A stretch of 64,000 nt of DNA from a virus, in the IMG/VR virus record IMGVR_UViG_3300032267_000607, positions 62,001 to 126,000 of that record, one strand, 5' to 3'. A program made the position numbers and the translations under genes. The notes below the pieces were generated by a model, which was given only the letters and a program-made list of their open reading frames with translations, did no database searches and was not told the DNA's origin. Shown here piece after piece: positions 13,299-35,392 of the stretch. How positions within the stretch are numbered: the first letter of the stretch is position 1; each line of letters opens with the position of its first letter.

Positions 13299-13859
13299 AT
13301 GAATAATGTTATGAAATATGTGATTACAGGTCATAGATCTGGTATAGGTAAATCTATATTTGATTATTATGTAAAACAACCTAATGTATATTGTGTTGGT
13401 TATGATTTATCACATCATTTAGATTTAAACGATTCAAAAGTACATTCAGATTTTATAGATAGTTGTAAAGATGCTTCAGTCATAGTATTGAATGCACATA
13501 CTGGACAACAACATGTTTCTTTAGAAGTTCTTTATAATCTTTATAAACAAGAATTAAAACATATAATCATAATGGGTTCAATGGTGAGTAAAATATGGAA
13601 GACTCTACAAGAAGTTCCTCAAGGATTTGAAAGCTATTGGTCGCAAAAGAAATTACTTGATAAAACAATAGAAGAATTATATAATCCAAACATACCTCTT
13701 AAAATTAGTATCATTCGTCCAGCTTGGGTTGATACTCAACTCGCAAAAGAATATTCAGGAAAAAAATTAACAATAGATTCAGTTTTAAATGTAATAAGAT
13801 TTATAATTGAGAATAAAGACACACACATAACAAATATGGAATTACAATGTACGAATTAA
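13299..13859 (+). CDS. Short-chain dehydrogenase/reductase (SDR)
   Basis: This 186-residue protein has a Rossmann nucleotide-binding motif at the N-terminus (VITGHRSGIGKS, the GxxxGxG pattern at residues 11-17). It also has an NA-type motif (VLNAHTG, N65) and a catalytic triad: S94 (IMGSM), Y113 and K117 (YWSQK). It therefore probably oxidises or reduces a hydroxyl/keto group with NAD(P)(H). It is shorter than typical SDRs (about 250), losing part of the substrate-binding C-terminus. The start is the first ATG behind the small basic ORF; a GTG further upstream would overlap that ORF. It overlaps the aminotransferase start by 13 nt, so the two products likely act together. Confidence 0.78.
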   Translation: MNNVMKYVITGHRSGIGKSIFDYYVKQPNVYCVGYDLSHHLDLNDSKVHSDFIDSCKDASVIVLNAHTGQQHVSLEVLYNLYKQELKHIIIMGSMVSKIWKTLQEVPQGFESYWSQKKLLDKTIEELYNPNIPLKISIIRPAWVDTQLAKEYSGKKLTIDSVLNVIRFIIENKDTHITNMELQCTN

Positions 13860-15070
13860 GAAACAGTGCTGATGGTGAACTTCCTAAAATAGTCACAAAC
13901 ACTCATCGTTATTGGGTTGAAATGAATGATGGTAAAAAATACTTAGATATTCAATCTGGTAATAGTGCTTTCACACTTGGTTATGGTAATACTGAAATAG
14001 TAAAAGCAATGGCTGATAAAATTACTTCAGTTGGTTTTATAAGAGGAAATACTGGTGAGAGTGATACAGATACTCAAGAGATGGTTCATTTTGTTTTATC
14101 TGAATCAAGAATGTCAGTTATGTCTTGGGCTATTTCTGGAACCTCAGCAGTAGAGTGTGCTATTATGATGAATGATAGTTATTGGAAACAAGTAAATCCT
14201 AAAAAACATTTAATTGTATCTTGCACTCCAGGATATCATGGCACAAGTTATCTTACAAGAGCAATGGCTAGTCCATATACAGCTGATTTTCCATCTGATA
14301 GATTAAGATGTATTAGAGCACCTAAGTGGAACACAATAGAAGAACGTGCATTGGAAGAAGAAAGAGCATTAGCAGAATTAGAAAAAAGATTTACTAAATT
14401 TGATGACTCTTCAAACGTTGGTGCTTTTATAATGGAAACATGTCCTTGGATGGATGGAATACTTCCTTACAGTAAAAGATGGTGGGATGGTGTTAGACAT
14501 CTTTGCACACAATATAATATAAATTTTATCACAGATGATGTGGCAGTTTGTTGGGGTAAATCATTATCTTATTTTGGTTATTCAACAGCAGGGTACAATG
14601 TTCAACCAGATATTATCGCTTGTGGTAAATCATTATCAGCAGGATATGCACCAATTGGATTTGCAGCAGGTAATTCTCGTATTGGTGAAATTCTTTCAAC
14701 ACAAGAATGGGGATGGGGTCATACTTGGCAACCTTACATGGCTGGTATTGGTGCAATGAAAAAAGTAAAACAAATTATTCAAGATAATGGTCTATTTCAT
14801 ACAGCAAAAAGAACAGTTATACGTTTAGATGAAATTGCAAAAGATTTATTTAATCAAGGATATATAAAAAGTTATAGGCAACAAGGATTGTTTTTAGAAT
14901 TAGATTGTAAGAATCCAACTGTTGGAGTAATGGGTAAGCTTGTTCGTTCAGGAATGCTTTCAACTACTCAACAAAACAATTCAGTAAGAATTATAGCAAA
15001 TTTAATTGCTGATGATGAGTATTTTAATGAATTAAAGACTAGATTAAAGGATTTTTTTAGTAAAAGCTAA
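13847..15070 (+). CDS. Class-III PLP-dependent aminotransferase (copy 1)
   Basis: This 407-residue protein has the fold-type-I class-III layout: substrate region YLDIQSGNSAFTLGYG, SGTSAVECA (phosphate contact), GYHGTS at 129-134 and ITDDVAVCWGK with the cofactor Asp at 230/231. The Schiff-base lysine is K261 in DIIACGKSLSAGYAP. The family includes glutamate-1-semialdehyde aminomutases and omega-amino acid transaminases; the exact reaction cannot be assigned. It overlaps the SDR, which could supply or consume the aldehyde/ketone. A second, diverged copy lies at 34.2 kb. Confidence 0.85.
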   Translation: MYELRNSADGELPKIVTNTHRYWVEMNDGKKYLDIQSGNSAFTLGYGNTEIVKAMADKITSVGFIRGNTGESDTDTQEMVHFVLSESRMSVMSWAISGTSAVECAIMMNDSYWKQVNPKKHLIVSCTPGYHGTSYLTRAMASPYTADFPSDRLRCIRAPKWNTIEERALEEERALAELEKRFTKFDDSSNVGAFIMETCPWMDGILPYSKRWWDGVRHLCTQYNINFITDDVAVCWGKSLSYFGYSTAGYNVQPDIIACGKSLSAGYAPIGFAAGNSRIGEILSTQEWGWGHTWQPYMAGIGAMKKVKQIIQDNGLFHTAKRTVIRLDEIAKDLFNQGYIKSYRQQGLFLELDCKNPTVGVMGKLVRSGMLSTTQQNNSVRIIANLIADDEYFNELKTRLKDFFSKS

Positions 15071-15073
15071 CCA

Positions 15074-15102
15074 TTTACATACAAGTATTTTTAGAGTATA
15101 AT
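15074..15102 (+). promoter_or_regulatory. Sigma70-like early promoter
   Basis: TTTACA, 17-bp spacer beginning TACAAGT and carrying TAGAG before the -10, then TATAAT. It shares TTTACATACAAGT with the primase promoter. The -10 ends directly before one ATG, so transcription should start at about the second ATG (six bases on), giving a leaderless mRNA. Confidence 0.78.
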
Positions 15103-15108
15103 ATGTCT

Positions 15109-15582
15109 ATGATTATAGTATCAAATCATATTAATATGTCACATACTGATCCATTTAAAATTGATATGATTGAAAACGATTTAGAAGCTAACAGAACATC
15201 AAAGAACATTGTTCCTTTGTTTGGAAGCATATTTGATATTGAGAAAAAAGGTACCAAATATTCGCTTGTGAATAAAAACTGGAACAATCGTATCCATGGT
15301 AAAGTAATTAGTTATGATCGATCCTCTCCTAATTCTATCTTTTTTGAAATTCAAACAAAATACGTTCCACCAATTTCTTTTTTTGATTATCTAGTTGAAT
15401 CAAAAAGATATTCAATTGAAGCAACTTATGGTACTGAAAAAACAAACTATGAAGATTTTAATGAGTTTGGTTTTGTTGGTGCTTATGATAATGGCGATGA
15501 TGAGTGTTGGGAAACTACACCACATAATTTAAAAGATGATTTAATACCACCACATTTATTGGCTTTATATAATATAGTATGA
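15109..15582 (+). CDS. Hypothetical protein (possible ferredoxin-like Api92 relative)
   Basis: This 157-residue protein uses a start chosen because the upstream promoter should begin transcription at this ATG; a second ATG six bases upstream touches the -10 and would not be in the mRNA. The body has NKNWNNRIHGKVISYD, IFFEIQTKYVPPISFFDYL, YSIEATYGTEK, FGFVGAYDNGDDECWE. This order (W..NFRIHG, F.T.W..P...F..L, Y...G.F.G....G) recalls the ferredoxin-like domain found in Api92-type phage proteins, without function. Its stop overlaps the methyltransferase start. Confidence 0.6.
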   Translation: MIIVSNHINMSHTDPFKIDMIENDLEANRTSKNIVPLFGSIFDIEKKGTKYSLVNKNWNNRIHGKVISYDRSSPNSIFFEIQTKYVPPISFFDYLVESKRYSIEATYGTEKTNYEDFNEFGFVGAYDNGDDECWETTPHNLKDDLIPPHLLALYNIV

Positions 15583-16436
15583 GAAAATCTGTAATAGTTA
15601 AATCTGCAATCGGTCGAGTATATCATGTCGAAGAAAATGATACTTTCTATGGTTCAAGATTAAAGAGCAGTGGATATCAAATAAACAATTTAAGATATTT
15701 TAGATCATTAACACCAAACGCAAGAACAATTATTGATGTAGGTGGTCATTTAGGAACTAATACTATTGAATATGCCACGTGGGCTAAGAATGTAAAAACG
15801 TTTGAACCAACATCATATTTAAGAAAATGGTTATTAGAAAATATTGAGTTGAATAAAAATGCTAAAACTAATGGCAAAGGTTGGTTTAAATTAGCTGATA
15901 AATCTTATGCTCCTATTTTAATGACTGGTGATATAGAAGTATTTCCATATGCTTTAAGTGATAGTGAGGGAGAACAAATTTTAAATACACTTACTTGTGC
16001 TTCTGGACATAATCATATAGAATTAGATTTTAATGGAAAAAAATTAACAAAAAAAGGTTGGGTTAAAAAATCTGAAAGCAAATCTACAAGAACTATTAAA
16101 GAAAAGATATTAACAAGAACATTAGATAGTTTTAAATTTACAAAAGTAGATGGAATTAAAATAGACGTAGAAGGATTAGAATTTCAAGTTATAAAGGGTG
16201 CTATTAATACAATTAAAAAGTATCGTCCAGTGATTCAAACTGAAATTCAAATAGGAATGTGTAGACGTGCTGGTTATGAAGCTAATGAATTATGCGAATA
16301 CTTAGCAAATATGGATTATGTACAGACACTTTCTGATGGAACAGTTATAAACCCATCAAATGTTTTTAGTGAAGTCAAAGCTAAAATAGATAGATTTTGG
16401 ATACCAAAAGAAAAATTAAAAAATGATATTAATTGA
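15579..16436 (+). CDS. FkbM-family methyltransferase
   Basis: This 285-residue protein carries the S-adenosylmethionine-binding motif TIIDVGGHLGTNTIEYA (about residues 50-66) with acidic motif KTFEPT. The FkbM-type post-motif is TLDSF...KVDGIKIDVEGLEFQVIKGA (about 180-208). FkbM enzymes O-methylate sugars and other small hydroxyl groups, often capping glycans. It is expressed from the promoter at 15.1 kb, overlaps both neighbours, and lies directly behind the aminotransferase. It could act on a sugar or lipid product of this region. Confidence 0.8.
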   Translation: MRKSVIVKSAIGRVYHVEENDTFYGSRLKSSGYQINNLRYFRSLTPNARTIIDVGGHLGTNTIEYATWAKNVKTFEPTSYLRKWLLENIELNKNAKTNGKGWFKLADKSYAPILMTGDIEVFPYALSDSEGEQILNTLTCASGHNHIELDFNGKKLTKKGWVKKSESKSTRTIKEKILTRTLDSFKFTKVDGIKIDVEGLEFQVIKGAINTIKKYRPVIQTEIQIGMCRRAGYEANELCEYLANMDYVQTLSDGTVINPSNVFSEVKAKIDRFWIPKEKLKNDIN

Positions 16437-20217: not shown

Positions 20218-20759
20218 TGCAAAAAGAACCAGTTAAATGGTATGATCGCTCGGCTGATTTTAGAAGACTTTCAGATATTGAAATGAGTGAATGCTTACGC
20301 AAATTAAAAATTTCTAAATTACATGTTAATATTCAAGACGATATGTATATGTGTCTTGCTAATTTAAGAGATTTAGGTTCTATTTCATCATTTAATAATG
20401 AATTAAAAGAAAACTTCTTTGTTTATTGTAAAGAAGTTGGCATAGATATTGAAAACTATAAAAGATCAGATGAAAAAAGAGTTATGACTGCTTCTTTTGC
20501 TAGTATAATATGGGATAAAATAGTTAAATTAATAAATGCTAATGAAGCAGATTCTTCTAAAAGAGTTAAGGGTATAAAAAAACTAGTTCTCTTTCGTTTA
20601 TTACAAAAAGAATTACCAGATCTTGATAAGAAACATATTCATAAGAATGTAAAGAATAATATTAAATTAGGTGCTTTAGAATATCATCAACAATCAAAAT
20701 CAAGTAAGTTAATTCGTAAAGGACAATACTGGAGCACGTATGTTAAAGTCAATAAGTAA
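20217..20759 (+). CDS. Helical hypothetical protein
   Basis: This 180-residue basic, helical protein (DFRRLSDIEMSECLRKLKIS, MYMCLANLRDLGSIS, KKLVLFRLLQKELPD, KHIHKNVKNNIKLGAL) starts at the ATG of a TAATG overlap; the upstream TTG would add two residues only. I considered helicase loader gp59 because of size and neighbourhood, but the residues do not match what I remember of T4 gp59, so no function is given. It overlaps the desaturase by 20 nt. Confidence 0.55.
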   Translation: MQKEPVKWYDRSADFRRLSDIEMSECLRKLKISKLHVNIQDDMYMCLANLRDLGSISSFNNELKENFFVYCKEVGIDIENYKRSDEKRVMTASFASIIWDKIVKLINANEADSSKRVKGIKKLVLFRLLQKELPDLDKKHIHKNVKNNIKLGALEYHQQSKSSKLIRKGQYWSTYVKVNK

Positions 20760-21585
20760 TTTTAGTTGGGAAGAATTTTCAACACGTAATAATTTATATT
20801 TTCGTGTTGCTTATTATATTTTTGTACATGTATTAGCATTACTCGCATTTAAATATGCTACACTAACTACATTCTTTACATTTATATTATTCTGGTGGTT
20901 TGGTGCTTGGGCTGTATCAGGTTATACTCATAGAACACTATCACATAAATCTATTGTAGTTAAGAATAAATATTTAGAGCATTTAAGTAATATATTTGCT
21001 ATATACGCAGGGATTGGCACACCTTTAGGATGGGCAGCATTGCATCGTATGCATCACACTCATCTTGATACTGAGTTAGATCCACATAGCCCACATAGAA
21101 TAGGGTTTTGGAGATCTTATTTACATTTATGGGATTGGCGTAAAGAAGATGTACCATTAAAATATACAGCAGGATTATTTCGTAATCGTATTGCTGTTTA
21201 TTATCACAATCGTGCTTTACCTACTTTATTATTATTCTGGTTTGGTTTATTCTTTATATCAGAATTTTTAAAAGTAAATCTAGGACTATTAGGTGGATTA
21301 GAAGTTTGTATTGGTGCAGCATTAGCTGTAGTTGCAGGATTGCATGGTATGGGTGTGACAAATGCAGTAAGTCATAGTCACGAAATACCAAAACAAGTTG
21401 TGTCTCTTGATCCAATCGCAGGAGCATTCGTTAATTGGGGCGAAGGAAATCATGAATATCATCACGCAAAACCAATGAATTATAGTTTTGGTGATGGCAT
21501 ATCAGATCCTGTCGCAAGAACTGCCGAATTATTCGAAAAATTAGAATTAGTTCAAATCAACAGAACGAGTGAATTAAATGGATAA
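20740..21585 (+). CDS. Fatty-acid (acyl-lipid/acyl-CoA delta-9 type) desaturase
   Basis: This 281-residue integral membrane enzyme introduces a double bond into an acyl chain using a di-iron centre. All three histidine boxes are present and correctly ordered: H64-R-T-L-S-H69, H102-R-M-H105-H106 and H238-E-Y-H241-H242. Hydrophobic spans lie at about residues 25-60, 85-100, 160-180 and 190-207. The length fits the bacterial DesC/cyanobacterial group. An electron donor is not encoded nearby. Together with the ketosynthase 3 kb downstream it suggests that the phage alters host acyl lipids. Confidence 0.88.
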   Translation: MLKSISNFSWEEFSTRNNLYFRVAYYIFVHVLALLAFKYATLTTFFTFILFWWFGAWAVSGYTHRTLSHKSIVVKNKYLEHLSNIFAIYAGIGTPLGWAALHRMHHTHLDTELDPHSPHRIGFWRSYLHLWDWRKEDVPLKYTAGLFRNRIAVYYHNRALPTLLLFWFGLFFISEFLKVNLGLLGGLEVCIGAALAVVAGLHGMGVTNAVSHSHEIPKQVVSLDPIAGAFVNWGEGNHEYHHAKPMNYSFGDGISDPVARTAELFEKLELVQINRTSELNG

Positions 21586-21841: not shown

Positions 21842-22513
21842 ATGAATTTTGTTGTAAATTTACCACATATACAATGCTGGATTAAAAAAGAGTTTCTCTA
21901 TGACTTTAAAAAAGGTTTCGGAGAATATGTTCCATGTACTTGGGTGACTCTTAAATCTATTCCACGTAGAGCATTCTACATTGAGAGTTATTTACCAGAG
22001 TATGGAGCACTCTATGATAAACTTCCTATAAGTGCTTATGTGTGGAAAACTGATATTGATTTAGATAAACAACTTCCTTTAGATTTTTTACAACTATGGG
22101 ATGGTTTTAGTTATCATATTACAGTAATTGAAAAACAATACCTACAACATTCTCGTGTTGAGATTATATTAAGAGATGGTTCACGTATGGGTGGTGAATA
22201 TCTATTTACAGTAGATAGTGCTCATGCTGATCCAAATATTCCAAACGTCACCGAGTCAGAAGTTCCTACAGAACACAAATCACACAATATTGGTAAATTA
22301 GATAATGGGCAATGGTTCGCTCAGCCAAATAATCGTATGCTTTTCTTCGAATCAAGTGCAAATAAAGCTAAAGGTTTAAATGTGCCTGATTTTAAAGTAA
22401 GTTCAAAATATTATCATTGTGAACAGAATCCAAAATGGGTATTCGGAGATTCCGATGAATACTTTTATCCATCATATGAAATCAACAAGAAACCTACTAA
22501 AAATGATAATTAA
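21842..22513 (+). CDS. Conserved T4-like marine phage protein, unknown function
   Basis: This 223-residue protein shows a strongly patterned sequence: IQCWIKKEFLYD, GALYDKLPISAYVWKTD, LQLWDGFSYHITVIEKQYL, VEIILRDGSRMGGEYLFTVD, HADPN, EHKSHNIGKLDNGQWFAQPN, NPKWVFGDSDEYFY. I recall the same series in T4-like cyanophage genomes as a conserved hypothetical. No enzyme motif is evident. It may be expressed late, given the box in front of it, and overlaps the following oxygenase-like gene. Confidence 0.7.
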   Translation: MNFVVNLPHIQCWIKKEFLYDFKKGFGEYVPCTWVTLKSIPRRAFYIESYLPEYGALYDKLPISAYVWKTDIDLDKQLPLDFLQLWDGFSYHITVIEKQYLQHSRVEIILRDGSRMGGEYLFTVDSAHADPNIPNVTESEVPTEHKSHNIGKLDNGQWFAQPNNRMLFFESSANKAKGLNVPDFKVSSKYYHCEQNPKWVFGDSDEYFYPSYEINKKPTKNDN

Positions 22514-23186
22514 TCATAAAGCATTAGATTCTAAACTTTGTCCTTTACCATTAACTGCAGAGGGTATGCAGTGGATGGAAAATGATAATACATATGAAAA
22601 ACAAACTAAATTATGGGTGCCAATTAAATACCATAATTCTGATTTTTTAAAATGGACTATGAATATAGGATTAAGTATTACAGACATAGAATTATTTTGT
22701 AATCCAGCAAATCATTCAATGCCTGTACATCTAGATGGAAATGAATTACATGATGAATTTAAATTGAATTATGCATTTAATCCAAGAGGAAATAGTTTAA
22801 TGAATTGGTTTAAACCAAAACCTAACACAATTGGCAAACGTGAGGGTGTTAGATATAAAAATAAAGATGAGAGAAATATTGATACAGCAGATTTATATTG
22901 GTATCCTGAAGAAGTTGATTTAATTGAAAGTCATGATGTTGAAGTTTCAATTGTTCAAGTAGGACAACCACATAACGTGACAACTACTCAACATTCTAGA
23001 AAATGTTTGTCTTGTGTATTTGATAAGAGACTTGTAAATGGTTATACTACAAACGAAGATATTATATTAAAAGAAGATCTACACATAATTGCGAAAAGAA
23101 GAGATGAAGCTGTTGGTAAAAAAATACTTCAAGATATTGTTCCTATGTGGGAAGCAATAGATTTATTTAAAAAATATATTATATGA
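22503..23186 (+). CDS. 2OG-Fe(II) oxygenase-like protein (subfamily C, copy 1)
   Basis: This 227-residue protein has its start at the ATG overlapping the previous gene by 11 nt; an ATG 84 nt upstream would only add overlap. The metal motif is H76-L-D78 (MPVHLDGNE), followed by MNWFKPKP, a YWYPEEVDLI segment, and the distal histidine H157 in VGQPHNVTT with Arg166 nearby. The two genes after next repeat this order (HxDG/N, W.P/..., [LV].[NV].G.PH). The fold assignment rests on the triad and the PH motif; the substrate is unknown. Confidence 0.65.
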   Translation: MIINHKALDSKLCPLPLTAEGMQWMENDNTYEKQTKLWVPIKYHNSDFLKWTMNIGLSITDIELFCNPANHSMPVHLDGNELHDEFKLNYAFNPRGNSLMNWFKPKPNTIGKREGVRYKNKDERNIDTADLYWYPEEVDLIESHDVEVSIVQVGQPHNVTTTQHSRKCLSCVFDKRLVNGYTTNEDIILKEDLHIIAKRRDEAVGKKILQDIVPMWEAIDLFKKYII

Positions 23187-24555: not shown

Positions 24556-25734
24556 ATGAAACCAGTATATGTAGTTGGATATGGAATGATCGACAGTCTT
24601 GGGAATAACCCAAAAGATTGTTTTGATAAGATGTTAGATAATAAAGATTATTCTTCTGATATACCTGAATTGAAAGCAGAGAACGCAAAAGTTTTTCGTG
24701 GTGCTATATTCAATCCTGACGATTGCATTATACCAAAAGATTTTGACATTAAGATGCTTCGTTCAATGACGAATGCACAAAAGATGATGCTTCATGCAGT
24801 TGATGCAGCATTAAAAATGTCAAACCTACCCCATCATTATGATGTTGCAACTCTTCTTTCAACAGTTTCAAACGATACTGAATTTTTAGATGAGTTGTAC
24901 TTACCTACAAAGAATCATAAAAGAGTAAATCCTAGAAAATCAGCAAATCGTATTCCAGATATGGGATGTTCGCATATTTCATCTCATTATAAATTTATGG
25001 GATTAAGTGCAGCAACATTCGCAAGTTGTTCTACTGGTCTTGTGACTATTGATTATGGAATGCGATTAGTTGATGAATATGAATATGTAATTGTCGGAGG
25101 ATCTGACGCAGGTTGTTTTCCGATGGCAATTAAATATTTTAATACATTAGGTGCTGTAGGAAATTACAGTATGCCTTTTGATAATGATCGTACAGGATTT
25201 TTAATGGGTGATGGTTGTGGTGTTTTAATATTACAATCAGAAGCAATGGTTAAAAAGTACGGAAGTAAGGTATTCGCTAAGTTATATCCTTGTGGTATGG
25301 CGAGCGATGCTTTAGATATGACAAGCCCAGCCAATGATGGCAGAGGTGCTCGTATAAGCATGTCTAAAGCAACAAAAGATATTGGAGAAATAGATTTTGT
25401 GTGTGCGCATGCAACATCTACACCAGTTGGTGATCCAATAGAATACGAGACTGTAGTTAGTTTCTTGGGAGAAAAACCTATTTGGGCACCGAAGTCAAAA
25501 ATAGGACATACCCTTGCAGCTGCTGGAGTGTTAGAGTGTATATATGCGATTCTTTCAATGCAAAGAGGAATCATACCACATATACAAAATTTAAAAAGTG
25601 CTTTTTGTGACACTAAAAATATTTTAGTTCGCGAGAATTTAAATACTAACAAAAAAGTTTTGCGAACATTAAATAACTCATTCGGATTTGGGGGAAAATG
25701 TATGTCGCAAGTAATAGAGGTAAATAAAGAATGA
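24556..25734 (+). CDS. fabF-like: Beta-ketoacyl-ACP synthase (KAS II / FabF-like)
   Basis: This 392-residue thiolase-fold condensing enzyme has a complete Cys-His-His site. C158 is in FASCSTG, H285 in CAHATSTPVGDPIE, and H318 in KSKIGHTLAAAG with K313 five residues before it. The C-terminal NSFGFGG motif is also present. It would elongate an acyl-ACP (or another thioester) by Claisen condensation with malonyl-ACP. The start is the ATG behind the late-type box; an earlier in-frame ATG would overlap the previous gene and adds an unrelated extension. No acyl-carrier protein is encoded nearby, so the host ACP would be used. This is very unusual in a phage. Confidence 0.9.
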   Translation: MKPVYVVGYGMIDSLGNNPKDCFDKMLDNKDYSSDIPELKAENAKVFRGAIFNPDDCIIPKDFDIKMLRSMTNAQKMMLHAVDAALKMSNLPHHYDVATLLSTVSNDTEFLDELYLPTKNHKRVNPRKSANRIPDMGCSHISSHYKFMGLSAATFASCSTGLVTIDYGMRLVDEYEYVIVGGSDAGCFPMAIKYFNTLGAVGNYSMPFDNDRTGFLMGDGCGVLILQSEAMVKKYGSKVFAKLYPCGMASDALDMTSPANDGRGARISMSKATKDIGEIDFVCAHATSTPVGDPIEYETVVSFLGEKPIWAPKSKIGHTLAAAGVLECIYAILSMQRGIIPHIQNLKSAFCDTKNILVRENLNTNKKVLRTLNNSFGFGGKCMSQVIEVNKE

Positions 25735-25883
25735 CAACAATAATACTTTTATCAATCGGTGTTATAATCGGTTGGACTTATAAGCCAGCATTTGCTGATA
25801 ATTTTATAAACAAATCTAAAGAAATTTTAAGTGGTGTTTTAACTTACTTAAAAGCTCTTGTTAAAAAAGGAGACAATAAGTAA
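25731..25883 (+). CDS. Small single-span membrane protein
   Basis: This 50-residue ORF is joined to the ketosynthase by an ATGA overlap. It has an N-terminal hydrophobic segment (TTIILLSIGVIIGWTYKPAF) with an AFA-like possible cleavage site, then an amphipathic basic helix (NKSKEILSGVLTYLKALVKK). It might tether the neighbouring enzymes at the membrane; this is speculation. Confidence 0.5.
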   Translation: MTTIILLSIGVIIGWTYKPAFADNFINKSKEILSGVLTYLKALVKKGDNK

Positions 25884-25884
25884 A

Positions 25885-26301
25885 ATGGCACAAGTAGAAA
25901 CAAACACAAAAACGGAATTGACAAATTCCAAGGAGATTCCCCAACGTCAAACATCTTGGGGTTATCATTTAATTATTGATGCAGCAGGTTGCACTAAAAA
26001 CTTTCAAGACCCAGTGGTTTTGAAAACTTTTTTAAATGACCTTTTAGTTCGCATCGACATGAACGCATGGGGTGAGCCATGGATAACTCACTTTGCTGAA
26101 AAACCAGAGATCGCTGGATGGACAGTAATACAAGCATTGACTACAAGTTCATTAACAATACACTTTTTAGATAATAATGGTGATTGTTATTTTGACTTGT
26201 TCTCATGCAAAACTTTTGATATTGAAATGGTGAAAACTATGATAAAAGAATATTTTGATCCTATTTCAATGAAGGATCAATATTTTGTTAGACAAGCATA
26301 A
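25885..26301 (+). CDS. speD-like: S-adenosylmethionine decarboxylase-like protein (SpeD homologue)
   Basis: This 138-residue protein has the SpeD layout: WGYHLIIDAAGC at 25-36, LLVRIDMNAWGEPWITHF at 53-70, and the processing region ALTTSSLTIHF at 84-94. FDLFSCK follows, with C108 in the place of the catalytic Cys. In classic SpeD the chain self-cleaves at Glu-Ser to make the pyruvoyl group. Here Ser88 is kept but the preceding Glu and following His are Thr and Ser, so processing may be altered. SpeD supplies decarboxylated AdoMet for spermidine synthesis and is known from cyanophages. The start is the ATG after aaaggagacaataagtaaa. Confidence 0.75.
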   Translation: MAQVETNTKTELTNSKEIPQRQTSWGYHLIIDAAGCTKNFQDPVVLKTFLNDLLVRIDMNAWGEPWITHFAEKPEIAGWTVIQALTTSSLTIHFLDNNGDCYFDLFSCKTFDIEMVKTMIKEYFDPISMKDQYFVRQA

Positions 26302-26772: not shown

Positions 26773-27855
26773 ATGAGTGTTTGGACAGATTATGATCCGT
26801 TGAAAGAAATTATTATAGGAAGTATTCCTACACCTGAATACTTTTCAAACTTTCTAAAACCAGATATCCTAGAAGTCCTTACACCCATTATAAAAGAAAC
26901 ACATGAAGACTTAAACAAGTTTGCTAATATATGTATTTCTTTAGGAGTAAAAGTATATAGACCAAAAGTGTTAGACTTTCGTGAACCACTTAGACTTCCA
27001 GGATTTAAAATTAAGAATCCAATATCACCTTTAGTGCCAAGAGATAGTTATCTTGTTTATGGTAATACAATTTATTCTTCATATACTAGTATGGCTGATA
27101 GATGGTTAGAGTCATTATCATTCTACGATATCTTTATGGAAAAGTTTGTAGAAGGATATAATTGGTTATCAACACCAGTACCACAATTAAAAGACTTTAG
27201 ACCTGACACTCAATGGTACACGCATGGTGGCGATCGTTATGGAGTAGAATTAAAAGATAAAATATTATGGCATTGTGCTACTATGTACAAATGTGGTGAT
27301 AGTTTAATTATTAATTCTTCGGGTCCAGGAACTAAATTAGGATATGACTGGATGCAACGTAATATACCTGATACTAAATTTATAAAGAATTCAAATAAGC
27401 CACACAAAGGATGGGGACATATAGATCAATTTTTCTTTCAAACGGATGATAATACAGTATTTTGTACTAATAAAAATTATGTCCCAGATGTATTCCTAAA
27501 TAATAGTAAGTTCAAAGTACATGAATTTGGTCACTTAATTAAAGATGTAGATATGAAACAATATGAACATCGTCTAGCACAAACAGATGGTAAATATAGT
27601 ATTGAATGGATTGATGAGTGGATAGATGAATGGAGAGGTTTCGCACAAGAAGTAGCATTTGATAGTAATGTAGTTGTAGTTGATAGTAAAAATGTAATTG
27701 TCACTAATGAACAACCAGCATTATCAAATTGGTTTAAAGAATTTGGTATAACACTACATCCTGTTAATTTAAGACAGGGTGGTTTTTGGGATGGTGGTGT
27801 TCACTGTTTATCGCTTGATATTAAAAGAGATGGAGAGAAAAGAAATATCGTATGA
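26773..27855 (+). CDS. Amidinotransferase (glycine amidinotransferase-like)
   Basis: This 360-residue protein of the arginine-modifying pentein fold moves the amidino group of arginine to an acceptor amine through a cysteine thioester. The catalytic triad can be placed at C345 (GGVHCLSLDI), H216 with D218 (WGHIDQFFF, as in the H-x-D of human GATM) and an Asp near 176 (CGDSLII). The N-terminus VWTDYDPLKEIIIGS is the usual 'E.D.L..V..G' entry. The acceptor is not known; glycine, a diamine or an amino sugar are possible. It lies behind SpeD and is coupled (ATGA) to the first of five oxygenases. Confidence 0.8.
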   Translation: MSVWTDYDPLKEIIIGSIPTPEYFSNFLKPDILEVLTPIIKETHEDLNKFANICISLGVKVYRPKVLDFREPLRLPGFKIKNPISPLVPRDSYLVYGNTIYSSYTSMADRWLESLSFYDIFMEKFVEGYNWLSTPVPQLKDFRPDTQWYTHGGDRYGVELKDKILWHCATMYKCGDSLIINSSGPGTKLGYDWMQRNIPDTKFIKNSNKPHKGWGHIDQFFFQTDDNTVFCTNKNYVPDVFLNNSKFKVHEFGHLIKDVDMKQYEHRLAQTDGKYSIEWIDEWIDEWRGFAQEVAFDSNVVVVDSKNVIVTNEQPALSNWFKEFGITLHPVNLRQGGFWDGGVHCLSLDIKRDGEKRNIV

Positions 27856-28850
27856 GAAAAATTTATAACTGGATTAATCCAACCTATTATGTAGATTATG
27901 ATAAATTAAAGGATGTAATAGTTCCTTTGATGCAAGAAGATTTACGTGAATGGATGATTAACAATCCGATCGAAACAAGCACTGAGTGTGCTTATGCTCC
28001 ACCAGAAGAAGTAGAAGAAAAGATATTATCCAAAAAAGAAGAGTTGAAGGCACATAAAAATCGAGCAATTGCTTATAAAGAAATTCTTACAGATGAAGCT
28101 GAAAGAAAACATTACAATGATTGGCGTTCTATTGATTTTCTTTATGAGTGTAAATGGAATAAAGAAGTTTTTAAAAGATCTTGGCAATTAATGTCTGAAT
28201 GTAAAGGTATTAAACAAATCTTTATTAATTTTATAAAACCAAATGGAATTATAACACCACATTTAGATACTTCTACTTGGGAAAAGATAGAAGAAGATTG
28301 GGGTTTGCCACTTTATTCATTAGAGGGTGGAAGTATTATTGCTACATTATTTACAGGTATGAAAAACAGAGAAGAAAAGACTGTTGGAATGAAAGTAAAT
28401 GGTGTTTATAAGTTTCCATTAGCAGGAGAATTAGTTTGTTTTGATGGAAGATGGAATGAACATCAAATGTGGAACAACACAAACGAGTGGAGAATTACAG
28501 CAGTAATAGATATTGATAGAAAATACTTTACTCAAGTGTTAGAGGATGTTGATGAAGAAAAGAAAGAAATAAACAGACCAAAAGATAGTCTTACGATAAC
28601 AGAAAATGCAACAATTAAATTTCAAAAATCTTTTAGTAAAGAAGAAGTAGAATATTATTTAAATCATGGTTTAACTGAAAAAATAGAATTTTTAAAAGAA
28701 AAAATACTTTGGTTGAATGAATATTCTGGGCGTAAAATATACGCAGACCATTTAGATGAAATTTCAACAACAACTTTTTTAAATGCTAATATAACAAAAA
28801 TAGATATATATTTTAAAAATTATAAGGAATATTATGTACATAGCACCTAA
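27852..28850 (+). CDS. Aspartyl/asparaginyl hydroxylase-type oxygenase (subfamily D, copy 1) with C-terminal extension
   Basis: This 332-residue protein has metal motif H137-L-D139 (ITPHLDTSTW), then IEEDWGLP, distal H204 (NEHQMWNN) and R214 (EWRITAVID). The INFIKPNG strand before HxD and the 'H.MWN.T..WR' ending recall aspartyl/asparaginyl beta-hydroxylase-like dioxygenases. Beyond residue 222 it carries about 110 extra residues (KSFSKEEVEYYLNHG, EKILWLNEYSGRKIYADHLD) absent from its four neighbours, possibly a substrate- or partner-binding domain. The start overlaps the amidinotransferase stop. Confidence 0.72.
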   Translation: MRKIYNWINPTYYVDYDKLKDVIVPLMQEDLREWMINNPIETSTECAYAPPEEVEEKILSKKEELKAHKNRAIAYKEILTDEAERKHYNDWRSIDFLYECKWNKEVFKRSWQLMSECKGIKQIFINFIKPNGIITPHLDTSTWEKIEEDWGLPLYSLEGGSIIATLFTGMKNREEKTVGMKVNGVYKFPLAGELVCFDGRWNEHQMWNNTNEWRITAVIDIDRKYFTQVLEDVDEEKKEINRPKDSLTITENATIKFQKSFSKEEVEYYLNHGLTEKIEFLKEKILWLNEYSGRKIYADHLDEISTTTFLNANITKIDIYFKNYKEYYVHST

Positions 28851-29520
28851 TTCATATATTAATTATGTTCAATTATTAGATCATTATCCTAAATTAGTTG
28901 AGGATATGAATAAATGGCTTAATACACATACACCAGAAAGAGATTCAATTGCTGTATATTCTGATGATCCTGCAAATAAGTTTTTGTCCACTACAACAAA
29001 CTTTGTAGAAAGCTGGACAACTGAAGAAGAAAAGCAACATCGTTATGATTGGAAATCTATTCCTGTGTTTTTTGAAAAAGCGTGGAACACAAAAGACTTT
29101 CCTAGATTTTCAGAATTTGGTAAAGATTTAAAAGGATTGAGACAATGTCTTATTAATTTTATTGCTCCACGTGGTAAAATTACAATACATAAAGATCACG
29201 ACAATTGGGGTAAGATGACAGAAGATTGGGGATTTAAGTGTGAAGGATATTCATTAGTTGCTACTTTAAAAACAGGAATGAAAAAAGCTACAGATAAAAC
29301 AGTAGGAACATGTATTAGAGATATTAAAACTGGAACTGACACTTGGAGTTATGCATTAGTAAATGAATTTGTTTGTTTTGATGGATTAAATTATAACCAT
29401 GCAATTACTAACAATACAGATGAATGGAGAATTTCAGCAGTATTTGATATTGATAAAGAAAAATTTGATCCTAGTTTTGTTAAAACTGATAAACAAGTTT
29501 GTGATTATTATGTGGATTGA
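28834..29520 (+). CDS. Aspartyl/asparaginyl hydroxylase-type oxygenase (subfamily D, copy 2)
   Basis: This 228-residue paralogue has H119-K-D121 (ITIHKDHDNW), EDWGFKCEGYSLV, distal H189 (NYNHAITNNT) and R199 (EWRISAVFDID). It keeps INFIAPRGKIT before the metal motif and ELVCFDG-like FVCFDGLN before the distal His. It overlaps copy 1 by 17 nt and copy 3 by 11 nt. The N-terminal 100 residues (SYINYVQLLDHYPKLVEDMN) align with the other copies as helical. Confidence 0.72.
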   Translation: MYIAPNSYINYVQLLDHYPKLVEDMNKWLNTHTPERDSIAVYSDDPANKFLSTTTNFVESWTTEEEKQHRYDWKSIPVFFEKAWNTKDFPRFSEFGKDLKGLRQCLINFIAPRGKITIHKDHDNWGKMTEDWGFKCEGYSLVATLKTGMKKATDKTVGTCIRDIKTGTDTWSYALVNEFVCFDGLNYNHAITNNTDEWRISAVFDIDKEKFDPSFVKTDKQVCDYYVD

Positions 29521-30193
29521 TGTAAAAAGATATAAAGATTATAAAAAATTATTTGATTATCAAAATATTTTAAATCTAGACATAAAAAACTGGTTAAAAA
29601 ACAATGATCCTATAAAGAATACAGAACCAGTTTATGAAGAAAGAGCAAGTAGTCAAGAGTCATATGGGAAACTTAATCCTGATGGTACTATAACTTCTAT
29701 CAGTTCGAAGTTTAGTGAACCACCAGCAGATCCTACAAAGAATCCAGAAGAATACGCACACAGAAAAGATTGGAGATGCGTAGGTGGGTTTTATGAACGT
29801 ACATGGAACACAAAAATAATAAAAGAATCATTAAAAGCTTTAACTATGTTAAGTGGTTTAAAACAATTAAATATAAATTTTCTTTGTCCCTTTGGTAAAA
29901 TAACTTCTCATTTAGACGATGGTGGGTGGAAAAAAATATCAGAAGATTGGGGTAAAGAAACTTACGGATATAGTATAGTACAAACAATTCAATCAGGTAT
30001 GACTGAATCATCATCAGAGTTAGTTGGCATGCGTGTAAATGATGTTGATAAATATCCATTAGTTGGAGAATTAGTTTGCTTTGATGGTATAAAAGGATTA
30101 CATAGCATGTGGAATAATACAAATATATGGCGTATTACTGCTGTGTATGATATAGATATAAACGCATTTAATAAATATAGTATATGTGGATAG
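29510..30193 (+). CDS. Aspartyl/asparaginyl hydroxylase-type oxygenase (subfamily D, copy 3)
   Basis: This 227-residue paralogue starts MWIDVKRYKDYKK, the same opening as copy 4 (MWIDATKYKHYE), which fixes the start. It has H134-L-D136 (ITSHLDDGGW), SEDWGKETYGYSIV, distal H198 (GLHSMWNNT) and R208 (IWRITAVYDID). The central insert at residues 40-85 is Ser/Pro-rich and unique. Tandem copies 1-3 share the EDWG motif; copies 4-5 have a shortened loop there. Confidence 0.72.
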   Translation: MWIDVKRYKDYKKLFDYQNILNLDIKNWLKNNDPIKNTEPVYEERASSQESYGKLNPDGTITSISSKFSEPPADPTKNPEEYAHRKDWRCVGGFYERTWNTKIIKESLKALTMLSGLKQLNINFLCPFGKITSHLDDGGWKKISEDWGKETYGYSIVQTIQSGMTESSSELVGMRVNDVDKYPLVGELVCFDGIKGLHSMWNNTNIWRITAVYDIDINAFNKYSICG

Positions 30194-30771
30194 ACGCAAC
30201 AAAATATAAACATTACGAAGTTCTTAAAACAAGTTTAATTCCTGCATTGGAGTTAGACTACAATAGATTCATTCGTAAATTTGATATTACAGAAACAGGT
30301 GTAAATGTATTTCGATTTGAATATCCTAATCGAGAAGACGATCATGCTGATGATTGGTGGGCTATACCACTTATTCAAGGAGGTGAAGCAGTACCACCTT
30401 TAAGAAATCCATGGCAACATGCAACAGCAAGTTTAAAAGAAATTCCTGGAGTATTTCAATCAATCGTAAATTTTATAAAACCAAATGGTGGATTGCCAAT
30501 GCATCATGACTTTGGTAGTTGGCAAAGAATAGAAGAAGCATTAGGTTATCCAGTAAAAGGATATACAATAGCTATTGGTATTGACATGCCATCAAACGAT
30601 CCGAATATTTGTGGTATGGAATTTGAAAATGATACTTTTCCAAGAACTTATGGAAATAAGGAAATAGTAGCATTTAATGGACGTGACTTTATGCATAAAG
30701 TATGGAATAAAACAGGAAATTGGCGTGTTTCTTGTGTAATTGATACTGATATAAAGGATTGGAACAATTAA
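30184..30771 (+). CDS. Aspartyl/asparaginyl hydroxylase-type oxygenase (subfamily D, copy 4)
   Basis: This 195-residue protein has H107-H-D109 (LPMHHDFGSW), the distal H171 in RDFMHKVWNKT and R181 (NWRVSCVIDTD). VNFIKPNGGLP precedes the metal motif exactly as in copy 1. It overlaps copy 3 by 10 nt and shares its N-terminal MWIDATKY. It is followed by a new early promoter, so copy 5 can be transcribed separately. Confidence 0.72.
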   Translation: MWIDATKYKHYEVLKTSLIPALELDYNRFIRKFDITETGVNVFRFEYPNREDDHADDWWAIPLIQGGEAVPPLRNPWQHATASLKEIPGVFQSIVNFIKPNGGLPMHHDFGSWQRIEEALGYPVKGYTIAIGIDMPSNDPNICGMEFENDTFPRTYGNKEIVAFNGRDFMHKVWNKTGNWRVSCVIDTDIKDWNN

Positions 30772-30812: not shown

Positions 30813-31412
30813 ATGTGGCTTGGAAATCCTACATCTTATTCAAATTATAGTGCTTTAAGTGCTATGATGATTGCTTTAATGAGCGACTATGCTGAATGGC
30901 GAAGTCAAAGATCATTCGAAGATACAGTAAATGCTGACGATCGTTATTCTATGCCTATTAATAATAGAGGTGGGTTTAAAGCATTACCATTGATTGATGC
31001 TCGTAAAATAAACGAACAATTAGAAGATAGATATCTTTGGAAACGTACTACTACTCAATTCTATAATATTCCTGGAGCAATAGACTTATGTGTCAATATG
31101 ATACGTCCAGGAAAAATGTTGCCAGTACATCACGATGGTTATGTTTGGGATTGGATACGTCAAAGTATGGGAGATCCTACAATTGAAGGATATACTGTAA
31201 GTTTTGGTATTGATATACCTGAACCTGAAAAGCAAGCATTATTATTTGATGGTGAAAAGAAAATCTGGAAGACAGGTGAGTTTGTAGCATTTAACGGACA
31301 CGATATTCAACACAGTTTAAAAAATGAAGCAACAAACCCAGAGCATTGGCGAGTGACGGCTGTAATGGAAATTGATAAAAAATATTTTAACAACTATTCT
31401 GTTGGTTTATGA
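30813..31412 (+). CDS. Aspartyl/asparaginyl hydroxylase-type oxygenase (subfamily D, copy 5)
   Basis: This 199-residue protein has H106-H-D108 (LPVHHDGYVW), GYTVSFGIDIPEP (cf. GYTIAIGIDMPSN of copy 4), FVAFNGHDIQHSLKN with distal H167, and R180 (HWRVTAVMEID). It is closest to copy 4. Unlike the other four it has its own early promoter, so it may be made early while the others belong to the transcript coming from the ketosynthase side. Confidence 0.73.
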   Translation: MWLGNPTSYSNYSALSAMMIALMSDYAEWRSQRSFEDTVNADDRYSMPINNRGGFKALPLIDARKINEQLEDRYLWKRTTTQFYNIPGAIDLCVNMIRPGKMLPVHHDGYVWDWIRQSMGDPTIEGYTVSFGIDIPEPEKQALLFDGEKKIWKTGEFVAFNGHDIQHSLKNEATNPEHWRVTAVMEIDKKYFNNYSVGL

Positions 31413-33967: not shown

Positions 33968-34130
33968 AGGATTCGTCGCAAAAGAGTATAAAGCATTTGG
34001 TGAAAATGCATGGGGTCAAAAAGTATTTGTAATTAAGTATAAGGGATTTTCTAATGTCACAGTAGAGAATGATTTTAACCAATGGATAAAAGAAGTAGAT
34101 GACCTCGCAATTGAAAAGAAAACAAAATAA
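33948..34130 (+). CDS. Small hypothetical protein
   Basis: This 60-residue protein starts at the ATG within the end of the exonuclease gene (20-nt overlap). It is aromatic and basic (NWQSNKGFVAKEYKAFGENA, QKVFVIKYKGFSN) with a helical end. No family is recognised; it could be a small partner of the exonuclease. Confidence 0.5.
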   Translation: MNWQSNKGFVAKEYKAFGENAWGQKVFVIKYKGFSNVTVENDFNQWIKEVDDLAIEKKTK

Positions 34131-34212
34131 AACATTTAAATCTCCTTTTTTAAGTGGAAGTGATATGAAACATGTACGAACTAAAAGAAATAAGTCCAGC
34201 AGAAAATCTTAA
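34099..34212 (+). CDS. Possible small basic ORF overlapping two genes
   Basis: This 37-residue ORF overlaps the previous gene by 32 nt and the aminotransferase by 41 nt. It is strongly basic (QLKRKQNKTFKSPF, MKHVRTKRNKSSRKS). It is the only reading that fills the 41-nt gap between the two larger genes. There is no clear ribosome site, so it may be chance. Confidence 0.22.
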   Translation: MTSQLKRKQNKTFKSPFLSGSDMKHVRTKRNKSSRKS

Positions 34213-35392
34213 GAGAGTTATTAAGACTGATGGATATTGGGTACATTACGAGAATCGTACTAACTTAGAAGTACAGTCTGGTAATTGTTCGTTCACATTA
34301 GGTTATAATCATAAAGAATTAAAGAGTCTATTACCAACGAATGAGATTGATTTTCTTCGTGGTAATAGTGGTGAGTCCGCAGAGCCTGTTGATCGTTTAA
34401 GTGAAACACTAACAAAAGAAGCTGGTATGGATGGCATCGCCTATGCTGTATCTGGTTCAGATGGTAATGAGTGTGCTTTTTATATTAATGATTTATATTG
34501 GACTAATAAAGGTGAACCGAATCGAAGATATATAATTTCAATACCACCTTGTTATCATGGAACTACAGTTGTTTGTCGAAGTGCAAATAATGATATCGTA
34601 GAGAAAAGACAGAGTCGTTTTGTACCGATACGTGGAAGAACTTGGTACACAACAGAAGATAGTATTGCGAACGAAACAAATGTACTCGAACAAATAATCG
34701 AAACATTTAAGAGTCGTAATGATATTGGTGCTATTTTAATTGAGAGTTATCCATGGAATAAAACAATTGCTCCATGGAGTCATAACTTCTATCAACTACT
34801 ACGTGCAACTGCTACGTTATATGGTGCAAATTTAATCGTAGATGATATTGCAGGTTATGGTGGTAAGATAGGAACACTCTTTACTCATACAGCTTATAAT
34901 ATAAAACCTGATATGGTGACAATTGGTAAAGCACTTACAAATGGACTAATACCATTATCAGCTTGTTTAATTAATGATAAAGTATTGAAACAAGTAAAGA
35001 CTACATTTAATTGGGGGCATACTTGGCAACCGAATATGTATGGTGTGCGAGTAGCGAATCGTTGTATAGAGTTAATCAAAGAACGAATGGCATACTCGAA
35101 AGTAATCGAAAAGAATTTAAACGATATAGGTGATCGTTTAAAGAGTAAAGGACTCGTGAGAAACGTAATTGGGAATGGAGTATGGAAGTCTTTTGTACCA
35201 GAACCAAATCCAATACCAATCTCGTTAGCTGAGATTGATAAAGCAGGAATGTCAGCAACAACGAACGAGAATACAATTAAGACAATTATACCACTAATTG
35301 CTGATGATATATACTTTGAAGAATTAGAAAAGCGATTAGAGGTTTGCTTTACAAATATAAAAGAACAAAGAACACAAGGACTATTGATATGA
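34172..35392 (+). CDS. Class-III PLP-dependent aminotransferase (copy 2)
   Basis: This 406-residue diverged paralogue of the 13.8-kb gene also starts MYEL. Matching elements are LEVQSGNCSFTLGY, LRGNSGES, VSGSDGNECAF, CYHGTT, VDDIAGYGGK (cofactor Asp at 224) and the Schiff-base K253 in MVTIGKALTNGLIPL. The pairing SGN.(S)FTLGY and RGN.GES between copies shows a common origin. The copies differ strongly elsewhere, so they may take different substrates or form a heterodimer. Ribosome site ggaag; its stop overlaps the next start. Confidence 0.83.
   Translation: MYELKEISPAENLKRVIKTDGYWVHYENRTNLEVQSGNCSFTLGYNHKELKSLLPTNEIDFLRGNSGESAEPVDRLSETLTKEAGMDGIAYAVSGSDGNECAFYINDLYWTNKGEPNRRYIISIPPCYHGTTVVCRSANNDIVEKRQSRFVPIRGRTWYTTEDSIANETNVLEQIIETFKSRNDIGAILIESYPWNKTIAPWSHNFYQLLRATATLYGANLIVDDIAGYGGKIGTLFTHTAYNIKPDMVTIGKALTNGLIPLSACLINDKVLKQVKTTFNWGHTWQPNMYGVRVANRCIELIKERMAYSKVIEKNLNDIGDRLKSKGLVRNVIGNGVWKSFVPEPNPIPISLAEIDKAGMSATTNENTIKTIIPLIADDIYFEELEKRLEVCFTNIKEQRTQGLLI

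What the first reader, a model, noticed from the sequence alone, without database searches (positions are those of the whole stretch)
13299..35392. Possible phage-encoded biosynthetic programme: ketosynthase, SDR, desaturase, two aminotransferases, amidinotransferase, SpeD-like, FkbM methyltransferase and oxygenases
Within 22 kb the phage carries enzymes for C-C bond formation (complete Cys-His-His ketosynthase), ketone/alcohol redox (SDR), desaturation (three His boxes), amination (two PLP enzymes), guanidinylation, AdoMet decarboxylation, O-methylation and hydroxylation. Each motif set is visible in the sequence. Together they could make or tailor an acyl-derived, aminated or guanidinylated compound, a modified lipid or a surface glycan. 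No carrier protein, adenylation domain or export gene is visible, so host ACP would be needed. This is the strongest candidate here for an undescribed system. The pathway itself is a hypothesis.
Basis: partly seen in the sequence, partly recalled or inferred. Interest (0 to 1): 0.93.

Follow-up and report, generated by a model that had tools for sequence, protein, structure and literature searches.

The report
Phage lipid and arginine enzyme modules
A lake virus of bacteria carries three small sets of enzymes, shared in the same order by related viruses, that probably rework the fats and the arginine-derived amines of the infected cell; single genes of this set were reported before, but the set, and relatives with their own fatty-acid carrier system, look undescribed.

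Summary
The enzymes are real and where stated. The phage is T4-like and fits freshwater pelagimyophages, in which fabF, a desaturase, speH and a 2OG oxygenase were reported in 2020 (PMC7029224). The genes form modules in one shared order in about four lineages: SDR-aminotransferase (adjacent in 14 of 14 contigs holding both), desaturase/oxygenases/ketosynthase, and SpeD-u262-amidinotransferase (adjacent in 19 of 19), followed by oxygenases. They are not one obligate pathway: a sister clade keeps desaturase and ketosynthase without aminotransferase or amidinotransferase, and 20 of 50 ketosynthase contigs show none of the others. The 'SpeD-like' protein seems to carry the residues of phage ornithine decarboxylases; beside an arginine amidinotransferase this suggests arginine to ornithine to putrescine. 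The ketosynthase belongs to a phage clade (34 rows; at most 31% identity to eight cell-type proteins) with an intact Cys-His-His triad. New: the sister clade encodes a FabI-type enoyl-ACP reductase, a holo-ACP synthase, an acyl-carrier domain and a probable hotdog dehydratase, most of a fatty-acid elongation cycle; the window's phage lacks these and would need host ACP. Aminotransferase-amidinotransferase and SDR-aminotransferase-desaturase sets in other phages keep a wider pathway possible. No activity was tested.

The parts
13299..13859 (+). short SDR-like protein; overlaps and is paired with AT1
   Evidence: weak adh_short match; within 200 bases of an AT in 14 of 14 contigs holding both
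13847..15070 (+). AT1, class-III PLP aminotransferase with Lys motif GKSLSAG
   Evidence: PF00202 7.4e-47; PDB 4-aminobutyrate and polyamine:pyruvate transaminases among the hits; motif
15579..16436 (+). FkbM-type methyltransferase; not in all lineages that have the modules
   Evidence: PF05050 7.3e-15; not found between AT and exonuclease in L163 and L161
16423..17289 (+). T4 RNase H-like exonuclease (phage core gene, marks the locus)
   Evidence: PF02739/PF09293, phrog_107
20740..21585 (+). membrane fatty-acid desaturase, three His boxes
   Evidence: homologues near the ketosynthase in relatives
22455..23186 (+). oxA1, Fe(II)/2OG oxygenase-like
   Evidence: HxD...H invariant in 14 of 14 aligned paralogues
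23353..23946 (+). oxA2, Fe(II)/2OG oxygenase-like
   Evidence: AF2 pLDDT 88.5; Foldseek best hits 1vrb (putative asparaginyl hydroxylase), MINA53, KanJ at 1-2e-4
23909..24535 (+). oxA3, Fe(II)/2OG oxygenase-like
24556..25734 (+). FabF-like beta-ketoacyl-ACP synthase of a phage clade; Cys158, His285, His318
25858..26301 (+). SpeD homologue, read here as pyruvoyl-dependent ornithine decarboxylase (SpeDC); start not settled
   Evidence: PF02675 1.3e-13; residues against PMC10407285 and PMC9992855
26285..26770 (+). u262, unknown conserved protein between SpeD homologue and amidinotransferase
   Evidence: no Pfam match; within 150 bases of both in 19 of 19 contigs
26773..27855 (+). arginine amidinotransferase (StrB/AGAT/HsvA/SxtG superfamily)
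27852..28850 (+). oxB1, Asp/Arg-hydroxylase-type oxygenase
   Evidence: PF05118 2.9e-5, above cut-off
28834..29520 (+). oxB2, same type, weak
   Evidence: PF05118 0.0042, below cut-off
29510..30193 (+). oxB3, paralogue (listed ORF 29399-30193; start not settled)
   Evidence: no Pfam hit; relatives found by the local oxB profile
30184..30771 (+). oxB4, Asp/Arg-hydroxylase-type oxygenase
   Evidence: PF05118 1.1e-6, above cut-off
30813..31412 (+). oxB5, same type, weak
   Evidence: PF05118 0.002, below cut-off
34172..35392 (+). AT2, second class-III aminotransferase, Lys motif GKALTNG
   Evidence: PF00202 9.6e-41

Best explanation
Three co-inherited host-reprogramming modules. (1) Lipid: the ketosynthase extends host acyl chains with malonyl-ACP and the desaturase adds a double bond, changing the acyl make-up of the infected cell's membrane; the window's phage needs host ACP and host reductases, while its sister clade brings its own holo-ACP synthase, ACP domain, enoyl-ACP reductase and probable hotdog dehydratase. 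(2) Arginine/polyamine: the amidinotransferase moves the amidino group of arginine to an amine acceptor and releases ornithine, which the SpeD homologue decarboxylates to putrescine; removing ornithine would pull the transfer forward. (3) SDR-aminotransferase: interconverts a hydroxyl/keto group and an amine, acting on putrescine or making the amine that is guanidinylated. Shown: families, catalytic residues, gene order, co-inheritance, purifying selection. Inferred: every substrate, the ornithine decarboxylase activity, and the effect on the cell.
For: Ketosynthase triad invariant in 34 of 34 full-length distinct viral sequences; dN/dS 0.08-0.12, lowest of the 16 genes in the most distant comparison. 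Desaturase seen in 26 of 50 ketosynthase contigs, many of the rest fragments. Sister clade: FabI-type protein, PF13561 6e-70, PDB 5koi 2e-64; AcpS PF01648 6e-10 above cut-off, in 14 of 15 FabI contigs; ACP domain with a DSL site, PF00550 above cut-off in the three longest records of that clade; dehydratase-like protein in the same three, Foldseek first hit R-hydratase 5cpg, 4.9e-5. SpeD homologue, u262 and amidinotransferase contiguous in 19 of 19 contigs, SDR-AT in 14 of 14. Ornithine decarboxylase: Gln/Thr/Phe/Tyr in 44 of 48 homologous ORFs, proven activity of five other phage homologues (PMC9992855), no spermidine synthase family match in 8 of 8 records.
Against: No enzyme was assayed. The FabI, AcpS and ACP proteins score below the NCBIfam equivalog or subfamily cut-offs (262 against 446, 40 against 60, 37 against 71 bits). 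The dehydratase model has low confidence (pLDDT 51.7), TM-scores of only about 0.4 to the query, and no Pfam, NCBIfam or PDB sequence hit. No second SDR (FabG) and no FabD were found in the sister clade. Ten of 29 ketosynthase records show no desaturase. The ODC residues were placed by order and spacing; the paper's figure was not seen, and L156 lacks the Tyr.
Confidence: 0.5

Rival explanations
1. One biosynthetic pathway: an acyl chain is made by the ketosynthase, desaturated, turned into a ketone and aminated by SDR-AT, guanidinylated by the amidinotransferase and hydroxylated by the oxygenases, giving a guanidino- or amino-lipid.
For: All 17 amidinotransferase-bearing ketosynthase contigs carry an aminotransferase; colinear order in about four lineages; SDR-AT-desaturase overlap end to end in L183, and AT lies with an amidinotransferase in L185, L188, L196, L200; L200's is StrB-like. 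SDR-AT-amidinotransferase copies streptidine logic (recalled).
Against: The sister clade keeps ketosynthase-desaturase and lacks AT and amidinotransferase in 7 of 7 records; in L156 the ketosynthase and the SpeD-amidinotransferase module lie about 6.5 kb apart; 20 of 50 ketosynthase contigs show none of the others.
Confidence: 0.15
2. Unrelated auxiliary genes gathered in a variable region of a T4-like genome, each acting alone.
For: The annotation of the isolate Melnitz shows none of them between flap endonuclease and lysin; FkbM varies; the ketosynthase is often alone.
Against: Adjacency in 19 of 19 and 14 of 14 contigs and shared order down to about 40% identity are more than a random collection gives.
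Confidence: 0.25
3. The enzymes decorate a surface glycan or virion component (aminated and guanidinylated sugar) rather than lipids or polyamines.
For: FkbM, SDR and aminotransferase are common in sugar modification (recalled); L200's amidinotransferase is closest to inosamine-phosphate amidinotransferase, 3e-60.
Against: No glycosyltransferase among the 20 segment proteins scanned with Pfam; the freshwater pelagimyophages are reported to lack LPS genes (PMC7029224).
Confidence: 0.1

Closest known systems
Freshwater pelagimyophages of group PMP-D putatively infecting Ca. Fonsibacter (Zaragoza-Solas 2020, PMC7029224; section 8 read whole, other passages)
   Same: T4-like myophage with speH, fabF, stearoyl-CoA desaturase and a 2OG oxygenase
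   Different: Its main text has no occurrence of amidinotransferase, aminotransferase or acyl carrier; in the section read the genes are only listed
Phage SpeD-derived ornithine decarboxylases (PMC9992855, PMC10407285; passages read)
   Same: Small SpeD homologue with the residues called diagnostic of ornithine decarboxylase, as in lake and freshwater phages
   Different: Here it sits beside u262 and an amidinotransferase; 'amidino' does not occur in the main text of PMC9992855
Bacterial type II fatty-acid synthesis (FabF, FabI, AcpS, ACP, 3-hydroxyacyl-ACP dehydratase)
   Same: FabF-like ketosynthase in the window; FabI-type reductase, AcpS and ACP domain in the sister clade
   Different: Ketosynthase is a separate phage clade far below the FabF equivalog cut-off; no FabG or FabD found; ACP domain lies inside a 323-aa protein
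Viral fabF/fabG/fabZ, fatty-acid pathway and desaturase auxiliary genes in surveys (PMC10653327, PMC11360552, PMC7678222; passages read)
   Same: Fatty-acid or desaturase genes in viral sequences
   Different: The passages found show no cassette with AcpS, ACP and FabI; 'acyl carrier' does not occur in these three main texts
Streptidine, HsvA and OroA amidinotransferase pathways (PMC12833800, PMC13123061, passages; streptidine recalled)
   Same: Amidinotransferase working with an aminotransferase or a decarboxylase
   Different: No homologous full pathway shown here; acceptor unknown

Membership tests
FabF-type beta-ketoacyl-ACP synthase | Both ketoacyl-synthase domains and Cys-His-His triad | tested here: met
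   Pfam above cut-off; 34 of 34 full-length sequences
FabF-type beta-ketoacyl-ACP synthase | Scores above the FabF equivalog cut-off | tested here: not met
   TIGR03150 211.5 bits against 493.75: works like FabF, not filed as FabF
Pyruvoyl-dependent ornithine decarboxylase (SpeDC) | Ser-His-Cys at the spacing of S63/H68/C83 | tested here: met
   spacing 5 and 15 in the window protein (residue numbers from PMC10407285)
Pyruvoyl-dependent ornithine decarboxylase (SpeDC) | Diagnostic Gln, Thr, Phe, Tyr | tested here: inconclusive
   present in that order in 44 of 48 ORFs, but the figure that fixes the columns was not seen
Pyruvoyl-dependent ornithine decarboxylase (SpeDC) | Decarboxylates ornithine, not AdoMet | not testable with these tools
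   needs an assay
Arginine amidinotransferase superfamily | Similarity to solved amidinotransferases and Cys/His/Asp motifs | tested here: met
   PDB matches 5e-24 to 2.3e-16; all three motifs in 40 of 48 ORFs, 6 lacking the Cys motif and 2 lacking all, not followed up
Arginine amidinotransferase superfamily | Hit to a Pfam or NCBIfam model | tested here: not met
   none at E 0.1 and 0.001
Complete type II fatty-acid elongation cycle (sister clade) | KS, dehydratase, enoyl reductase, ACP, AcpS | tested here: inconclusive
   KS, FabI, AcpS and ACP domain above Pfam cut-offs but below NCBIfam cut-offs where tested; dehydratase only by fold and motif
Complete type II fatty-acid elongation cycle (sister clade) | Ketoacyl reductase (FabG) | tested here: not met
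   PF13561 finds one SDR only, the FabI, in each of three records
Freshwater pelagimyophage (PMP-D) | T4-like core with speH, fabF, desaturase, 2OG oxygenase | tested here: met
   against PMC7029224
Freshwater pelagimyophage (PMP-D) | tRNA match to Ca. Fonsibacter | not tested
   no host genome could be reached with the scans left
Fe(II)/2OG oxygenase (oxA) | HxD...H and similarity of fold to 2OG oxygenases | tested here: met

The most novel reading that the evidence does not exclude
These phages carry a phage-evolved, acyl-carrier-dependent synthesis system: in the sister clade with its own ACP domain, AcpS, FabI and dehydratase; in the window's lineage joined to an SDR-aminotransferase and an amidinotransferase-decarboxylase so that one phage pathway makes an aminated or guanidinylated acyl product.
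Probability: 0.15. Interest if true: 0.9.

Novelty: new variant of a known kind. Interest (0 to 1): 0.62.

Why it matters
If right, phages of abundant streamlined aquatic bacteria steer membrane lipids and arginine/polyamine pools during infection.

Tried and rejected
Rejected: AdoMet decarboxylase for spermidine synthesis (no spermidine synthase family match in 8 of 8 records; ODC-type residues). Saxitoxin- or cylindrospermopsin-like cluster: suggested only by SxtG similarity; no class I/II aminotransferase domain in 8 of 8 records and no carrier in G000; dropped. Campylobacter phage CP220 also has an amidinotransferase (26%), among radical-SAM genes; the gene upstream of it shows no similarity to u262 (E 0.5). 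A cellular source of the ketosynthase: one scan of the genome collection, 215 pattern matches, one relative at 25%; the two patterns are narrow, so this is a weak negative. Searches of named phages with amidinotransferase, desaturase and AT1 gave only distant hits. No near DNA match of the 22-kb segment in the phage collection, where near relatives may be left out. The search for the ketosynthase in 14 aminotransferase records found none but had no positive control. Pfam's desaturase model misses the window's own desaturase, so its negatives are weak; the local profile saw only the loci held.

Dropped before counts: four of 38 distinct ketosynthase sequences, not longer than 360 aa. Loci not entered in my contig list were left out of the table: AT1-only fragments L050-L053, L057, L058, L063, L064, L067, L068; ketosynthase fragments L151 and L152; ACP-domain loci L103, L104, L106-L111, L113, L114. 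The eight 'cell-type' ketosynthases of the tree are one Spirochaete and seven records filed as phages that I take to be bacterial DNA or host-type genes. The words 'marine' and 'freshwater' for IMG/VR contigs are recalled from dataset numbers and come from no call.
Full report
What the window is. The window is bases 62001-126000 of a 144,834-base virus record. Baseplate and tail proteins match T4-type families; the nearest isolates by a baseplate wedge protein are Methylophilales phage Melnitz (41%), Pelagibacter phage HTVC008M (41%) and Mosig (39%). The annotation of Melnitz shows none of the enzymes discussed here between its flap endonuclease and lysin genes. Zaragoza-Solas et al. 2020 (PMC7029224, section 8 read whole) describe two freshwater pelagimyophages, assigned to Ca. 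Fonsibacter by tRNA genes, with speH, fabF, stearoyl-CoA desaturase and a 2OG oxygenase. The window fits that description, so those genes are not new. The host is taken from that paper by likeness and was not tested. The habitat words used below for other contigs are recalled, from no call.

The enzymes. Families were checked with Pfam, PHROGs, NCBIfam and the PDB. Ketosynthase: FabF-like, PDB 4r8e 1e-40. Amidinotransferase: PDB StrB 5e-24, SxtG 7e-22, HsvA 3.4e-20, arginine:glycine amidinotransferase 8e-18 to 2e-16. Two class-III aminotransferases, NCBIfam matches far below cut-offs. The SDR is weak. oxA1-3 had no Pfam hit; 14 aligned paralogues share HxD...H without exception, and the model (pLDDT 88.5) matches 2OG hydroxylases at 1-8e-4. 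oxB1-5 are Asp/Arg-hydroxylase-like: two above the Pfam cut-off, two below, one without a hit. Across all loci, overlapping ones counted more than once, the Lys motif was seen in 63 of 71 aminotransferase ORFs and all three His boxes in 74 of 89 desaturase ORFs; the rest were not looked at.

The ketosynthase is a phage family. A single-sequence scan gave 28 viral loci and an alignment scan 50, two of them short fragments. Cys, His and His are invariant in 34 of 34 full-length distinct sequences. In a tree with eight cell-type sequences the 34 phage rows are one side of a branch with support 100/100, though long branches meet there; lowest phage-phage identity is 44%, highest phage-cell identity 31%. 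A scan of the bacterial and archaeal genome collection found one relative, at 25%. One member sits in a 333-kb contig among genes that read by eye as terminase, RecA-like and helicase.

Three modules. I mapped profiles of every gene on the loci. Of 50 contigs with the ketosynthase, window included (3300009160_000029 is nearly the same phage), 17 carry the amidinotransferase; all 17 also carry the SpeD homologue, u262 and an aminotransferase, AT1 or AT2. Of the other 33, one (3300028025_002828) carries an aminotransferase. The desaturase was seen in 26 of 50; 20 of 50 show none of the other profiles at the thresholds used. SpeD homologue, u262 and amidinotransferase are neighbours (within 150 bases) in 19 of 19 contigs that hold all three; SDR and aminotransferase (within 200 bases) in 14 of 14. 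Desaturase, oxA and ketosynthase are looser, within about 8 kb. The order SDR-AT, exonuclease, desaturase, oxA-ketosynthase, SpeD-u262-amidinotransferase-oxB is the same in the window type and in 3300017917_001739, 3300021962_000556 and 3300044630_000786, down to about 40% identity for AT1. Most of the 17 are close relatives, so independent lineages number about four, and most contigs are fragments. In L156 the ketosynthase ends at 2685 and the SpeD homologue starts at 9225, so these modules can be apart. dN/dS in three comparisons is 0.08-0.12 for the ketosynthase, 0.10-0.27 for the amidinotransferase and 0.11-0.23 for the exonuclease used as yardstick; the range over 16 genes is 0.05-0.65, and dS is near saturation in the most distant comparison.

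The sister clade. In the tree the ketosynthases of L021, L023 and L026-L029 (marine by recalled dataset numbers) are sister to the window's clade. In L034, of the same kind, there lie upstream of the ketosynthase a FabI-type enoyl-ACP reductase (PF13561 6e-70; PDB 5koi 2e-64; NCBIfam FabI 4e-78 but 262 bits against a cut-off of 446), a holo-ACP synthase (PF01648 6e-10, above cut-off; acpS model 40 against 60 bits), the desaturase and two oxA proteins. FabI is in 15 contigs; AcpS and desaturase in 14 of these 15, the ketosynthase in 7 of 15; the other eight loci end less than 5 kb behind FabI, about where the ketosynthase would start. PF00550 rings above its cut-off in G001, G002 and G003, in an open frame of 326-331 aa with a DSL site, about 29 kb from the cassette, and in none of the other 13 of 16 records, nor in 11 further ones; most of these are fragments. 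The same three records carry a 171- to 179-aa protein with D-x-N-P-x-H. It has no family or PDB sequence hit, its model is of low confidence (51.7), and Foldseek puts R-hydratase PhaJ1 first, with human HTD2 and HadBD among the first eight, mixed with hotdog thioesterases. I read it as a probable dehydratase. PF13561 finds no second SDR and PF00698 no FabD in these records. The window's phage has neighbours of both genes (u115 by BLAST; primase-like gene by eye) but no match to either gene.

The SpeD homologue. PMC9992855 (passages) reports that five lake or freshwater phage SpeD homologues decarboxylate ornithine, one of them also arginine and another with a trace of it, and do not restore spermidine in a speD mutant. 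PMC10407285 (passages) names Gln, Thr, Phe and Tyr as diagnostic and a Pro as typical of true AdoMet decarboxylases. The window protein reads VIQALTTSSLTIHFLDNNGDCYFDLFSC: Ser, His and Cys at the spacing of S63/H68/C83, with Gln, Thr, Phe and Tyr in that order. 44 of 48 homologous ORFs, overlapping loci counted more than once, read alike; L155-L157 and L065 did not match the pattern. L156 has Gln, Thr and Phe but not the Tyr, and L065 is cut by its end. I could not see the figure that fixes the columns. With an amidinotransferase two genes downstream the simplest chemistry is arginine + acceptor to ornithine + amidino-acceptor, then ornithine to putrescine. An amidinotransferase paired with a decarboxylase is reported for sponge oroidin (PMC12833800, passages).

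Is it one pathway? For: in the aminotransferase scan (38 loci) I examined the 27 new ones. Four outside the window's lineage (L185, L188, L196, L200) also hold an amidinotransferase, roughly 6-9 kb away on the other strand; L200's matches StrB at 3e-60. In L183 SDR, aminotransferase and desaturase overlap end to end. Against: 11 of 29 ketosynthase records have the amidinotransferase and 12 of 29 an aminotransferase; the sister clade has neither in 7 of 7 records; ten of 29 records show no desaturase by Pfam over the record or by the local profile in the locus. I therefore favour separable modules (0.5), with a single pathway at 0.15.

Prior work. Fatty-acid or desaturase genes as viral auxiliary genes are in PMC10653327, PMC11360552 and PMC7678222 (passages). 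Ten library searches, judged by titles and starts of abstracts, listed no paper on a phage cassette of FabI, AcpS, ACP and ketosynthase or on a phage SpeD-amidinotransferase pair; subscription journals and supplements were not searched, and Roitman 2018 on cyanophage desaturases was not held.

Noticed in passing
L034:15033-15608 and other loci of the sister clade: Alternative oxidase (PF01786 1.2e-65) close to the fatty-acid cassette
   Followed up: partly
L080:11784-15923 (-): A 1379-aa protein that starts like a nucleotidyltransferase (by eye), next but one to the ACP-domain protein; its first 200 aa match G000 at L004:12676 (50%)
   Followed up: no
L194 and L195, about 7.4-12.8 kb: Aminotransferase-SDR pair between proteins that read by eye as radical-SAM enzymes, in a 220-kb and a 127-kb contig; looks like another phage biosynthetic cluster
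   Followed up: no
L031:3948-4370, L130:1137-1631, L160:10385-10837: dCMP-deaminase-like gene (PF00383 in L031; by eye in the others) overlapping the start of the desaturase frame in three lineages, not seen there in the window
   Followed up: partly
L147:11216-13178: Three Asp/Arg-hydroxylase-like genes in a row directly behind a ketosynthase (two confirmed by PF05118); ketosynthase and oxygenase arrays recur together
   Followed up: partly
window 42581-48105: Block of minus-strand genes before the tail genes; the 524-aa protein has no PHROG match
   Followed up: no
phages collection, hits: Several unverified 'phage' records carry host-type FabF or FabB genes and look like bacterial contamination
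   Followed up: no
L069 (Pelagibacter phage Mosig) 3.9-20.6 kb: Isolate with its own cluster of aminotransferases, desaturase, Asp/Arg hydroxylases, carbamoyltransferase and nitroreductases beside tail-fibre genes (annotation)
   Followed up: no
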